Shown: positions 40,305 through 61,595 of the stretch, one piece after another
Layout: every line of letters starts with the position of its first letter
Position numbering within the stretch: the stretch's first letter is position 1
Assembly (NCBI RefSeq): GCF_003289945.1
Contig: NZ_QMBP01000002.1
Span: forward strand, 186,001-250,000
Reading direction: 5' to 3'
Source of the DNA: Mesorhizobium hawassense
GTDB lineage: Bacteria; Pseudomonadota; Alphaproteobacteria; Rhizobiales; Rhizobiaceae
Length of the DNA stretch: 64,000 bases
Translations under genes and position numbers: made by a program
The notes under the pieces: generated by a model
Database searches by the model: none
What the model saw: only the letters and a program-made list of their open reading frames with translations
What the model was told of the DNA's origin: nothing

Positions 40305-40325
40305 ATAGTCCCCGTGCCTTGTGTG
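40305..40325 (-). promoter_or_regulatory. Flagellar promoter element of the motA operon
   Basis: On the minus strand CACACAAG is followed after exactly 10 bases by TATCCC, matching the element found before the DUF1217 gene, flgB, fliF and flgE. The TA lies 39 bases before the motA ATG. This reading comes from comparing promoters within the window. Confidence 0.6.
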
Positions 40326-40330
40326 AGGCT

Positions 40331-40357
40331 TGAATCGAAGGCTATGGATGCGATTCA
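40331..40357. promoter_or_regulatory. Inverted repeat between motA and DUF1217 promoters
   Basis: TGAATCG and CGATTCA form a perfect 7-base dyad with a 13-base centre, lying exactly between the two divergent promoter elements. It is well placed for a single activator or repressor of both operons. Confidence 0.45.
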
Positions 40358-40361
40358 GCTT

Positions 40362-40382
40362 CGCGCAAGGAAGTGACGCTAT
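40362..40382 (+). promoter_or_regulatory. Flagellar promoter element of the DUF1217-flgF-fliI operon
   Basis: CGCGCAAG, 10 bases, then TATCG. The TA lies about 36 bases before the TTG start. Spacing is identical to that of the other flagellar promoters in the window. Confidence 0.6.
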
Positions 40383-40415
40383 CGTGCAGGGATAGCTTCG
40401 GCCGGAGGCGTATCC

Positions 40416-41537
40416 TTGCTCAATACCTACACCAGCTACCAGTTGATCGCGAAAGATATAAACAAATCGATCACCCAGGTCGAGCAACAGCCGACGGTCG
40501 ATCGTGATACGCAATATTACCTGGCCAATATCGGCAAGGTTACATCGATCGACGATTTCGTAAACAATGACCGCCTGTTCAAATATGCCATGAAGGCTTA
40601 CGGGCTGGAGGACATGGACTACGCCAAGGCCTTCATGGTCAAGGCGCTGAAGGAGGGCATCTCCGACGCCGACAGCTTCGCCAACAAGCTGACCGACAAG
40701 CGCTACGCCCAGTTCGTCGCTGCCTTCAACTTCGCGGCCGATGGCACCAATGCGACGGTCTACAACCCGACACAGCAGCAGGTTACAGCAAACTACGCCA
40801 CACAGGCACAGATCGCCGGCCTCGACCCGAATTCGGACTATGTGAAAGGCGAGACGACCTACTATCTCGCCAACATCACCAAGGTGAAGTCGATCGACGA
40901 CCTGATGTCGAACGACCGGCTCTATACTTACGCGCTGGCCGCCTTCGGCCTGGATTCGGCCACCGAGGACAAGGACCTGATCAAGTCCGTCCTGCAAGGC
41001 GGCGTGAAGGATCCCGACAGCGTCGCCAACCAGCAAACCAATAAGGCCTATGCCGGGCTCGCCGCTGCTTTCAACTTCGCGCAGTACGGCGATACGACCA
41101 CCACTCGCGTTGCGGCACAGCAGCCGACCGTCGACATGTATCTGCGCCAGACGTTGGAAGAGAATGCCGGCCAGACCAACGAAGGCGTCCGGCTGGCGCT
41201 CTATTTCCAGCGCAAGGCGCCCGACATCACCAGTTGGTACGATGTGCTGGCCGACACCGCTCTAGCCAGCGTGGTTCGCAGCGCGCTCGGCCTGCCCGAT
41301 TCCTTCGCCACGGCCGACATCGACAAGCAGGCGCAGCTGTTCGGGCAAAAGCTCGACATCAAGGACTTCAGCGATCCTGACAAGCTCAGCAAGTTCCTGA
41401 CCCGCTTCACCAGCATGTACGAGATCGCTCATCCGACCTCGACGGCCGTGACATCGGTCAGCGTGCTTTTTGCGCAGCCGACCACCATCGGCATCTCCAC
41501 CGACCTGATGATGGCCATGCAGCAGTTGAAGTTCTGA
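40416..41537 (+). CDS. DUF1217 flagellar-cluster protein with three internal repeats (TTG start)
   Basis: Protein of 373 residues of the DUF1217 family, function unknown, found in alphaproteobacterial flagellar clusters. Three related units are visible at about 34-106, 149-221 and 262-336. The first two share YYLANI-KV-SIDD, NDRL and AAFNFA; the third (ALYFQRKAPDITSWYDVL) is more diverged. No signal peptide or membrane segment is seen. The start is TTG at 40416 with GGAGG 7 bases upstream. Seven bases separate it from flgF, so it is co-expressed with basal-body genes; a structural or export-related role is plausible but unproven. Confidence 0.85.
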   Translation: MLNTYTSYQLIAKDINKSITQVEQQPTVDRDTQYYLANIGKVTSIDDFVNNDRLFKYAMKAYGLEDMDYAKAFMVKALKEGISDADSFANKLTDKRYAQFVAAFNFAADGTNATVYNPTQQQVTANYATQAQIAGLDPNSDYVKGETTYYLANITKVKSIDDLMSNDRLYTYALAAFGLDSATEDKDLIKSVLQGGVKDPDSVANQQTNKAYAGLAAAFNFAQYGDTTTTRVAAQQPTVDMYLRQTLEENAGQTNEGVRLALYFQRKAPDITSWYDVLADTALASVVRSALGLPDSFATADIDKQAQLFGQKLDIKDFSDPDKLSKFLTRFTSMYEIAHPTSTAVTSVSVLFAQPTTIGISTDLMMAMQQLKF

Positions 41538-60133: not shown

Positions 60134-60653
60134 CTTCGCTGCCGGCGCCGCCAGCGCCGCCGCCAATCCCTGCGAGCCGGAGATCCTGCGAGCCGCCGAT
60201 CGCTACGGCGTGCCGGCAGGCATCCTCTACGCTGTCGGCCTGACCGAGACCGGGAAGAAGGGTAGCCTCCAGCCTAACGCCATGAATATAGAGGGAAAAG
60301 CGATCTTCCCGCGCAGCCGCGGCGAAGCGCTCGCCACATTCGAGAACGCGCGGCGCGAGGGCAAGACATTGATCGACCTCGGCTGCATGCAGATCAACCA
60401 TCACTATCATGGCGATCATTTCCGCAGCGTCGACGACATGCTCGACCCGCACCAGAATGTCGACTACGCGGCGCGTTTCCTGGCCAGCCTGCACGCCCGG
60501 CATATGACCTGGTCGATGGCCGTCGCCCGCTATCATGCCGGCCCCGACAACGACCCGGCACAGAAGATCTATGTCTGCCGCGTCATCGCCAACATGGTCG
60601 CCACCGGTTTCGGCAAATGGACGCCGAACGCCAGCGCGTTCTGCAATCAATAG
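60057..60653 (+). CDS. Lytic transglycosylase-like protein overlapping motD
   Basis: Secreted SLT-like enzyme of 198 residues that would open peptidoglycan for the rod. The signal peptide is at about 1-36 (AVLLRLFASALATICLSSFAAGAASA). The predicted catalytic Glu64 lies in YAVGLTETGKKG, and the LGCMQINHHYH and VARYHAGPD motifs complete the lysozyme-like fold. The ATG at 60057 lies inside motD but has a strong AAAGGAA ribosome site 4 bases upstream, so the 77-base overlap is real. No flgJ muramidase is visible in the window, and this protein probably serves that purpose. Confidence 0.82.
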   Translation: MAMAHRISAVLLRLFASALATICLSSFAAGAASAAANPCEPEILRAADRYGVPAGILYAVGLTETGKKGSLQPNAMNIEGKAIFPRSRGEALATFENARREGKTLIDLGCMQINHHYHGDHFRSVDDMLDPHQNVDYAARFLASLHARHMTWSMAVARYHAGPDNDPAQKIYVCRVIANMVATGFGKWTPNASAFCNQ

Positions 60654-60701
60654 TTGAATTTCCTTCAACGCCGAACGGCCTTCGTCGGCCTATGAGCCGA
60701 C
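60653..60701. promoter_or_regulatory. Dyads in the rem/ftcR upstream region
   Basis: Two perfect 6-base inverted repeats, GTTGAA/TTCAAC (60653-60669) and GTCGGC/GCCGAC (60684-60701), open the 221-base gap before rem. The first begins at the transglycosylase stop. They are candidate regulator sites (rem is VisNR-controlled in Sinorhizobium) or an operon-end hairpin. Confidence 0.35.
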
Positions 60702-60874
60702 GCCAATATTCGTCCGCCAAAACTGGGGGCAAATACACCTGCACAACCGCTTTTATTACGGCTCCCAAAAAACTCCCAAGAAAATAGCTACAAGAAATGA
60801 TGGTTTTTCAGGATTCGCCGGGCCGGCTACCCCTTTACGCACGGGGCAAGTGGATTGATTCGGAGGGCGGGCCG

Positions 60875-61543
60875 ATGATCGTGATCGTTGACGAGCGGGA
60901 GCTCGTAACAGAGGGCTACTCCTCACTTTTCGATCGCGAGGGCGTGGCCACGGCTGGCTTCGCGCCAGGTGAATTCGGCGAGTGGGTGAGTTCCGCGGCT
61001 GACACCGATCTCAGATCCGTCAGGGCCTTTCTCATCGGCGACTGCCGCGAGGGCGCGATATCGCCGCGCCAGATCCGCGACCGCACCGGCGCGCCGGTGA
61101 TCGCGCTCAGCGAACACCACTCGCTCGAACATACGCTGCGGCTGTTCGAAAGTGGCGTCGACGACGTCGTCCGCAAACCTGTCCATATCCGCGAGATCCT
61201 TGCCCGCATCACCGCCATCCGCCGCCGCGGTTCCGAAGAGGCCGCCTACACCGAAGTCGGCTCGATGCGCATCTTCATGGACGGCCGCGATCCGGAGATC
61301 GACGGCGAACCGCTGCCGCTGCCGCGGCGCGAACGGCGCATCCTGGAATACCTGGCCAGCAACCGCGGCCGGCGCGTGACCAAGACGCAGGTCTTCAACG
61401 CCATCTACGGCATCTTCGACGACGAGGTCGAGGAGAACGTGGTGGAGAGCCACATCTCGAAGCTGCGCAAGAAGCTGCGTGAGAAGCTCGGCCGCGATCC
61501 GATCGATTCCAAGCGGTTTCTCGGCTACCGGCTGGTGTTTTGA
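60875..61543 (+). CDS. rem: OmpR-type flagellar activator Rem/FtcR
   Basis: Transcription activator of 222 residues. The N-terminal receiver-like domain (1-120) lacks the usual clear acidic pocket and ends SGVDDVVRKPVHIREILARI. The C-terminal OmpR winged helix (about 130-222) has PLPRRERRILEYLASNRGRRVTKTQVFNAIYG and VVESHISKLRKKL. It is called Rem in Sinorhizobium and FtcR in Brucella, where it drives mid-level flagellar genes. The ATG at 60875 starts the MIVIVDERELV strand; an upstream ATG at 60797 adds 26 unconserved residues. It lies between the motor genes and flgE, the standard position. Confidence 0.9.
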   Translation: MIVIVDERELVTEGYSSLFDREGVATAGFAPGEFGEWVSSAADTDLRSVRAFLIGDCREGAISPRQIRDRTGAPVIALSEHHSLEHTLRLFESGVDDVVRKPVHIREILARITAIRRRGSEEAAYTEVGSMRIFMDGRDPEIDGEPLPLPRRERRILEYLASNRGRRVTKTQVFNAIYGIFDDEVEENVVESHISKLRKKLREKLGRDPIDSKRFLGYRLVF

Positions 61544-61574
61544 TGGCCGCCCAGGGCTCATCCCGCACCAGCCT

Positions 61575-61595
61575 CGCGCAAGACACGAGGCATAA
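61575..61595 (+). promoter_or_regulatory. Flagellar promoter element of flgE
   Basis: CGCGCAAG, exactly 10 bases, then TAATTTT; CATAAT here also resembles a sigma70 -10 box. The TA lies 42 bases before the flgE ATG. It would drive flgE and flgK. Confidence 0.62.

What the first reader, a model, noticed from the sequence alone, without database searches (positions are those of the whole stretch)
40305..61595. Shared promoter element with fixed spacing at five flagellar operons, plus flagellin variants
Seen directly: C[G/A]C[G/A]CAAG, then exactly 10 bases, then TA, before motA (minus strand, 40325-40305), the DUF1217 gene (40362), flgB (44493), fliF (53551) and flgE (61575). In all five the TA lies 32-42 bases before the start codon. 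flaB has CGCGCAAC-N10-TA (52181) and flaA a weaker form (50826), both with much longer leaders. The divergent motA/DUF1217 pair has one copy on each strand. The TA falls where a -10 box would, and CGCGCAAG falls inside the -35/-10 spacer, so this is either an activator site overlapping the promoter or an unusual sigma recognition. Rem/FtcR is the best candidate binder because FtcR binds upstream of fliF in Brucella.
Basis: partly seen in the sequence, partly recalled or inferred. Interest (0 to 1): 0.8.

Follow-up and report, generated by a model that had tools for sequence, protein, structure and literature searches.

The report
Operator switching on flagellar operons
Six flagellar promoters in this window share a double-copy landing site of fixed geometry, best read as the site where the flagellar master regulator Rem docks to start transcription, and similar sites precede flagellar operons in related bacteria and the gene of an unstudied 58-residue protein.

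Summary
The five elements are real (5 exact matches, 0.27 expected). The full element, roughly GMCAGCYYCRCGCAAGSY-N8-TAnnnT, is a tandem repeat with PhoB/CtrA-like geometry and no visible -35 hexamer. A matrix trained only outside the genus ranks DUF1217, fliF, flgB, flgE, flhA, motA, flaB and flgJ as the top 8 sites in 124 kb. It precedes fliF in 71 of 71 and flgE in 77 of 77 assessable named relatives and flagellar operons of Sinorhizobium meliloti. It tracks rem: pattern in 60 of 72 Rem+ against 31 of 177 Rem- genomes. Four genomes of the same genus without rem and fliF have lost it before a retained 58-aa gene, while all 12 tested genomes that keep the box there have rem. Best reading: the operator of Rem/LafR/FtcR, an orphan regulator with glycine at the phosphorylation position, activating sigma-70 promoters as PhoB does. 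The flaA form is rejected; the flaB form is upheld. Binding is inferred. New, as far as my word searches show: the box, and the 58-aa gene as a target.

The parts
40302..40336 (-). Rem box and -10 of motA: half 1 GATTCAAGCCT (40336-40326), half 2 CACACAAG (40325-40318), -10 TATCCC (40307-40302)
   Evidence: score 20.2
40351..40385 (+). Rem box and -10 of the DUF1217 gene: CGATTCAGCTT CGCGCAAG N10 TATCGT
   Evidence: score 25.3
44482..44516 (+). Rem box and -10 of flgB: perfect tandem CGCGCAAGGTC CGCGCAAG N10 TAGTCT
   Evidence: score 23.9
53540..53574 (+). Rem box and -10 of fliF: GCTATCATCCT CGCACAAG N10 TAGTCT
   Evidence: score 25.0
61564..61598 (+). Rem box and -10 of flgE: CGCACCAGCCT CGCGCAAG N10 TAATTT
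   Evidence: score 23.5
52170..52204 (+). Variant box and -10 of flaB: CCATCAAGGCT CGCGCAAC N10 TAACAT, long leader (166 nt)
   Evidence: (score 18.3); similar CAAC site in G354
52220..52235 (+). Exact TTAA-N7-TTAAC (CtrA-type) site in the flaB leader, just downstream of the flaB box
   Evidence: pattern with up to 1 mismatch: 2 overlapping matches, 0.54 expected; the CtrA consensus is recalled
60875..61543 (+). rem: orphan OmpR/PhoB-type response regulator, proposed binder; start taken at codon 27 of the longest frame
   Evidence: Response_reg, Trans_reg_C; start inferred from stop codons upstream in relatives; model; the name is recalled
33573..34547 (+). visN-like LuxR-type regulator (start uncertain)
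   Evidence: GerE; homologous pair shortly before rem in L212 and L231; two such genes in the S. meliloti cluster; name recalled
34544..35314 (+). visR-like LuxR-type regulator
   Evidence: GerE; weak autoinducer-binding match; name recalled
39393..40268 (-). motA (target)
   Evidence: MotA_N, MotA_ExbB
40416..41537 (+). DUF1217 gene (target; may be the orf38 of the S. meliloti literature, not tested)
44543..44923 (+). flgB (target)
   Evidence: (longer frame, Flg_bb_rod)
53609..55267 (+). fliF (target)
61635..62888 (+). flgE (target)
52365..53435 (+). flaB, a flagellin gene (probable target)

Best explanation
The element is the operator of Rem (LafR/FtcR family), the OmpR/PhoB-type flagellar master regulator encoded in the same cluster. 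Two Rem winged-helix domains bind head to tail on two half-sites spaced one 11-bp turn apart (upstream GMCAGCYY, weaker; downstream CRCGCAAGSY, stronger). The downstream core ends 10 bp before a sigma-70 -10 box (TAnnnT), and the place of the -35 hexamer is taken by the box, so the promoter depends on the activator, as pho-box promoters do on PhoB. Rem probably acts without phosphorylation, since the acceptor position is an almost invariant glycine; its activity would then be set by its amount (VisNR acting on rem). Shown here: the sequence, the 11-bp repeat, the fixed spacing, conservation, and co-occurrence and co-loss with rem. Inferred: that Rem is the protein that binds, that it dimerises head to tail, that it contacts sigma, and that transcription starts about 7 bases after the -10.
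For: Exact sites. Upstream columns conserved outside the genus though not used to anchor the alignment, and T, A, T at +18, +19, +23. Similarity of the two halves peaks at a shift of 11 (9.87, next 3.87 at 10). Of 207 distinct boxes in 80 named loci, selected without the -10 columns, 169 have TAnnnT at +18 and at most 3 at any other offset from 8 to 33; in 60 unnamed loci 35 of 93 and at most 1. Top 8 of 124 kb are flagellar genes (flhA, flgJ). fliF 71 of 71, flgE 77 of 77. S. meliloti: the seven best hits in 63.4 kb precede the motB operon, flgB, flgE, fliF, motA, an unannotated gap where flhA is expected, and DUF1217. Rem+ 60 of 72 with pattern against Rem- 31 of 177; genus g34 3 of 3 against 0 of 5, genus g66 6 of 6 against 1 of 3. 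Two g34 Rem+ genomes carry boxes through the flagellar cluster beside rem (a third by one-mismatch pattern), while fliF of two Rem- g34 genomes has none. Co-loss in four genomes of the genus. A review states that LafR controls lateral but not polar flagella and needs no phosphorylation, and that Rem activates fliM, orf38 and assembly and motor genes (passages of PMC8429497). Glycine follows strand beta3 in the model.
Against: No binding or start-site data. 12 of 72 Rem+ genomes in the order sample and 10 of 87 in the family sample (counted by hand) have no exact match to the pattern. Of the 12, 11 had a fetched rem locus: 8 hold a matrix site of 16 or more (some of these trained the matrix), 3 (G001, G197, G199) hold none within about 10 kb of rem; the 10 were not scanned. 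12 of the 60 rem loci hold no site of 16 or more, in part because flagellar genes lie out of reach. Related genomes are not independent, so the Fisher p (1e-22) overstates the case. visN/visR lie in the same cluster and may have been lost together with rem. The ChIP-seq motif published for the Brucella homologue FtcR is TGTGGGCA (118 of 363 peaks; passages of PMC9456535), which is not this box. A box-like site (CGCGCAAC form) is conserved in four g34 genomes, one of them without rem. In other families the -10 often departs from TA (GA or CA at fliF, TC at flgE).
Confidence: 0.85

Rival explanations
1. VisNR, the LuxR-type pair encoded in the same window, binds the box directly, and Rem only correlates with it.
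For: visN and visR lie in the cluster and may have been lost together with rem in G360, G384, G391 and G398 (not tested).
Against: LuxR-type sites are usually inverted repeats (recalled); here it is a direct repeat of 11 bp. No VisN/VisR hit in the fetched 79.5 kb of two g34 flagellar clusters that carry many boxes, though genes elsewhere in those genomes were not sought. A review states that B. diazoefficiens lacks visNR but has the Rem homologue.
Confidence: 0.05
2. The box is the -35-like element of an alternative sigma factor (sigma-28-like spacing of 8-mer, N10, -10).
For: An 8-mer and a -10 separated by 10 bp resemble sigma-28 geometry (recalled).
Against: The -10 is TAnnnT, as for sigma-70. 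The second half-site 11 bp upstream has no role for a sigma factor. Presence follows rem. Whether these genomes encode such a sigma factor was not tested.
Confidence: 0.04
3. Another OmpR-type regulator (CtrA or an uncharacterised one) uses the box.
For: Same 11-bp geometry as the CtrA site; a box-like CAAC-form site is conserved in a g34 genome without rem.
Against: CtrA's site is TTAA-N7-TTAA (recalled); its one exact match in the window is in the flaB leader, outside the box. The box decays in genomes that lost rem.
Confidence: 0.05
4. Conserved by chance or by coding constraint.
For: One related site lies inside the flhB coding end (window 35941 minus, score 13.9; S. meliloti score 20.1).
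Against: The six window sites lie before genes; 103 hits of 16 or more in 60 rem loci (29 of them training sites, 17 in own-genus loci) against 2.7 in a Markov null.
Confidence: 0.01

Closest known systems
pho box of PhoB (class II activation of sigma-70)
   Same: Two 11-nt direct repeats bound head to tail, overlapping the -35 position; contact with sigma-70 and strict spacing to the core promoter (passages of PMC4415409, PMC10294691, PMC3348028).
   Different: Half-site sequence is GCAAG-based instead of CTGTCAT; the proposed regulator lacks the phospho-acceptor Asp; the targets are flagellar.
Rem (S. meliloti), LafR (B. diazoefficiens), FtcR (Brucella) regulons
   Same: Same regulator family and the same kinds of operons (fliM, orf38, assembly and motor genes; passages).
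   Different: My word searches listed no paper that offers this box (listings; one search found none). The FtcR ChIP-seq motif reported is TGTGGGCA (passages). The passages I saw of the S. meliloti start-site survey give three new motifs, none this one (PMC3616915). The primary Rem and FtcR papers are not held.
CtrA box (TTAA-N7-TTAA, recalled)
   Same: OmpR-family direct repeat with 11-bp period.
   Different: Different sequence; a separate CtrA-type site sits in the flaB leader.
ChxR, an atypical OmpR/PhoB regulator
   Same: Works without phosphorylation and recognises tandem repeats (abstract of PMC3960148).
   Different: Different organism, targets and site.

Membership tests
PhoB-type class II activator operator | Direct repeat with 11-bp period | tested here: met
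   similarity peaks at shift 11; perfect copy at flgB
PhoB-type class II activator operator | Fixed distance to a sigma-70 -10 box | tested here: met
   TAnnnT at +18 in 169 of 207 and 35 of 93 boxes, at most 3 at any other offset; the remaining boxes have other letters there
PhoB-type class II activator operator | No own -35 hexamer (TTGACA) at 16-18 bp | tested here: met
   read by eye from the columns: -5 to 0 are A K N Y Y C
PhoB-type class II activator operator | Regulator binds and recruits sigma-70 | not testable with these tools
   needs footprint and transcription in vitro
Rem/LafR/FtcR regulon | Sites at class II operons, not at class III flagellin genes | tested here: inconclusive
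   met in S. meliloti (none of the ten best hits precedes a flagellin gene); but flaB here and one flagellin gene each in g34 and g66 genomes have a site
Rem/LafR/FtcR regulon | Present with rem, absent without it | tested here: met
   as a strong tendency; exceptions in both directions are given in the report
Rem/LafR/FtcR regulon | Expression depends on rem | not testable with these tools
   known for homologues by review only
FtcR motif TGTGGGCA | TGTGGGCA within the site | tested here: not met
   not in any of the six boxes printed (read by eye)
CtrA box | TTAA-N7-TTAA in the box | tested here: not met
   the one exact match is in the flaB leader, outside the box
Alternative-sigma promoter | -10 unlike sigma-70, no upstream repeat | tested here: not met
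OmpR/PhoB response regulators (Rem) | Receiver plus winged-helix domain | tested here: met
OmpR/PhoB response regulators (Rem) | Phospho-acceptor Asp at the end of beta3 | tested here: not met
   Gly in 55 of 56 ungapped sequences at the residue after beta3 in the model; the sequence alignment to RegX3 would put the site at residue 76 instead, which is mostly Glu or Gln, so no Asp either way

The most novel reading that the evidence does not exclude
One phosphorylation-independent PhoB-like switch of fixed geometry has controlled flagellar construction across much of the order, and its regulon reaches beyond the flagellum to a small protein (58 aa, predicted from sequence only) that cells keep after losing fliF and rem, so motility is wired to a second, unknown process. 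In the Brucella relative the published FtcR motif would then not be the flagellar operator.
Probability: 0.5. Interest if true: 0.68.

Novelty: new member of a known kind. Interest (0 to 1): 0.58.

Why it matters
Rem, LafR and FtcR are known as flagellar master regulators in rhizobia and relatives. My word searches turned up no operator with this architecture for them, and the one genome-wide motif I found in print differs. A concrete box with strict spacing makes the binder, the mechanism (PhoB-like, without phosphate) and the regulon directly testable with point mutations, and it predicts a new regulon member.

Tried and rejected
flaA site: rejected by score. Autoregulation of rem through the box: best score upstream of rem is -1.6, so none seen. 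Core pattern alone as regulon marker: rejected, 17 of 24 genome-wide core matches have a poor upstream half. Candidate sites C1:779268 (20.5), C35:269472 upstream of a gene that looks like mutL by eye (21.2) and C14:52152, probably inside a gene (23.9), all, were not tested for conservation and are not claimed. Site inside the flhB end: conserved in other genera of the family, but it is coding, so not claimed. Microvirga plasmid homologue of Rem (50.5% identity) lies among non-flagellar genes and was not pursued.

Rows dropped: 37 sites outside the genus were found by an 8-base anchor; 8 were left out of matrix training: L072 FlgB, L109 FlgB and L094 MotA because I judged that the anchor had picked a wrong position, L075, L083, L071, L081 FlgE and L111 FliF because I judged the element unconvincing. 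Only 60 of the 75 non-own Rem matches listed were fetched.
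Full report
Observation. They lie 39, 36, 32, 40 and 42 nt from the T of TA to the start codon of motA, DUF1217, flgB, fliF and flgE (motA counted). flaB has a variant (CAAC); the flaA form fails. The window's genus is not named by the tools; its closest named relatives by Rem are Mesorhizobium, and I call it that only in this sense.

What it is. Aligning the sites shows a second copy 11 bp upstream: perfect at flgB (CGCGCAAGGTC CGCGCAAG), weaker elsewhere (CAAG, TCAG, TCAT, CCAG). 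Columns -8 G, -6 C, -5 A, -4 G/T, -2 Y, -1 Y and +18 T, +19 A, +23 T are conserved without having been used. The halves match each other best at a shift of 11. So the element is a tandem repeat followed, 10 bp after the core, by a sigma-70-like -10 (TAnnnT). At the place of a -35 (columns -5 to 0) no TTGACA is seen.

Specificity. A matrix of 29 sites outside the genus (8 of 37 dropped, listed under Tried and rejected) scanned over 124 kb of this genome gives, in order, DUF1217, fliF, flgB, flgE, flhA, motA, flaB, flgJ (25.3 to 15.8), then 13.9 and 13.7, where the Markov null expects about 1 per 124 kb at 13 or more. flhA and flgJ lie outside the window (C2:263986 and C2:272568); the first gene matches FHIPEP, the second the rod-binding family PF10135, and its -10 is CATTGT. 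Genome-wide, 24 exact cores exist; the upstream half, scored with the independent matrix, separates seven (six flagellar plus one at C57:77397; scores 2.2 or more) from the other seventeen (-0.9 or less). In the 60 rem loci 103 sites reach 16, 29 of them training sites and 17 in own-genus loci, against 2.7 in the null; 48 of the 60 loci have at least one.

Conservation. In 80 named loci (Mesorhizobium, Aminobacter, Nitratireductor, Aquamicrobium, Chelativorans and others) a site scoring 14 or more lies within 250 bp of fliF in 71 of 71 and of flgE in 77 of 77 that could be assessed. Spacing to the -10 is fixed: 169 of 207 distinct boxes have TAnnnT at +18 and at most 3 elsewhere; in the 60 unnamed loci 35 of 93 and at most 1. 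In S. meliloti Ak57 (63.4 kb without the overlap of the two stretches) the seven best hits precede the motB operon (293 nt before the annotated first gene), flgB, flgE, fliF (150 nt), motA, a gap without annotation where flhA is expected, and DUF1217. Hits 8 and 9 (20.1, 18.9) lie inside genes, flgJ is tenth (17.6), and 15.3 (before fliN), 14.2 (antisense among flagellin genes) and 13.5 (234 nt before a sensor gene) follow. None of the ten best precedes a flagellin gene. S. meliloti is not strictly held out, since the genus g2 loci L062 and L063, perhaps the same genus, gave flgE sites to the training set.

Link to Rem. Rem orthologues are sharply set apart from other response regulators (165 bits or more against 91 or less). 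Over 249 genomes of the order, 60 of 72 Rem+ and 31 of 177 Rem- have the pattern (147 hits against 34 reversed-control hits; 45 against 89). Within genus g34: 3 of 3 against 0 of 5; within g66: 6 of 6 against 1 of 3. Over 101 genomes of the family: 77 of 87 Rem+ and 7 of 14 Rem- (11 hits against 8 control hits in the Rem-, counted by hand). Of the 12 Rem+ order genomes without the pattern, 11 had a fetched rem locus; 8 of these hold a matrix site of 16 or more, some of them training sites, and G001, G197 and G199 hold none. The ten family genomes were not scanned by matrix. Genomes are related, so p values overstate. Two Rem- g34 genomes have a fliF (31-33% identical to the window's) without a box.

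A natural experiment. The site at C57 lies 62 nt before a 58-aa frame next to an ABC-transporter gene. The frame occurs in 59 of 61 genomes of the genus (the two misses are assemblies of 940 and 690 contigs) and varies mostly at third codon positions (139, 109, 598 differences), so it is very probably translated. It matches no Pfam or NCBIfam family at the thresholds used. Of 35 loci examined (of 59 genomes matched), 31 have the box 54-64 nt upstream. The four without it (G360, G384, G391, G398) have neither rem nor fliF; all 12 genomes with the box that were tested for rem have it (8, 4). The frame is kept, the box is eroded. Related small proteins occur in other genera (26 of 101 family genomes matched, own genus included, the weakest doubtful). 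Of the 10 best outside the genus, all in Rem+ genomes, 7 have a box 51-65 nt upstream; of 8 weaker ones in Rem+ genomes, 2 have a site of 14 or more, 120 and 170 nt upstream, and 6 have none; none of 4 in Rem- genomes has one (two further matches were not examined). The four genomes may go back to one or two losses, and the whole cluster including visNR may be gone, so this points to a regulator of the flagellar cluster rather than to Rem alone.

Mechanism. PhoB binds two 11-nt direct repeats head to tail, overlapping the -35 position, and contacts sigma-70 (passages). The geometry here is the same. Rem has receiver and winged-helix domains, but the residue after strand beta3, where the phosphate acceptor should be, is glycine in 55 of 56 ungapped sequences (model pLDDT 84, pTM 0.55, from close relatives only). 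A review reports that LafR needs no phosphorylation (passages). So Rem probably works by amount. Binding, dimer form and sigma contact are inferred.

Against. A ChIP-seq study of Brucella FtcR gives TGTGGGCA (passages). Either FtcR differs, or that motif is not the flagellar operator; I did not test Brucella by name. A CAAC-form site is conserved in four g34 genomes, one without rem, ahead of a Tlde1-domain gene in the one genome where I looked at the gene, unexplained. The primary Rem and FtcR papers could not be read, so an earlier description of this box there cannot be excluded.

Verdict. Real, well supported, an operator of a known kind with a new sequence and one new predicted target. 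Interest 0.58.

Noticed in passing
G000:C57:77163-77336 minus (L023:1267-1440 minus), outside the window: 58-aa frame with a Rem box, kept in 59 of 61 genus genomes, even in four without rem and fliF.
   Followed up: partly
window 52220-52235: Exact CtrA-type site in the flaB leader just downstream of the box: flaB may have two controls.
   Followed up: no
window 60875: rem probably starts at codon 27 of the longest frame, since relatives have stop codons upstream of it.
   Followed up: partly
window 35941 minus: Box-like sequence inside the flhB end; a closely similar sequence (e.g. TGCGCAAGTCTCGGTGGATAGTGT) recurs in many genomes of the family and, in S. meliloti, lies in flhB before a small gene; coding constraint may explain it.
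   Followed up: partly
L253-L256: CAGCCYYGCGCAAC-type site conserved in four g34 genomes, one of them without rem; in L253 a Tlde1-domain gene follows.
   Followed up: partly
L322:826-2246 (S. meliloti Ak57): An ISRm16 transposase gene lies directly upstream of flgB, but the Rem box is kept between them.
   Followed up: no
G000 C2:309605, C2:373443, C9:118481, C18:62947, C27:29579, C68:169829: Dispersed repeat like AATTCCAGGAAAAGTGTGAGCGGTTAGG (variants), unrelated to the box by its low matrix scores.
   Followed up: no
L324:19959-20627 (Microvirga sp. VF16 plasmid): Rem homologue (50.5% identical) among non-flagellar plasmid genes.
   Followed up: no
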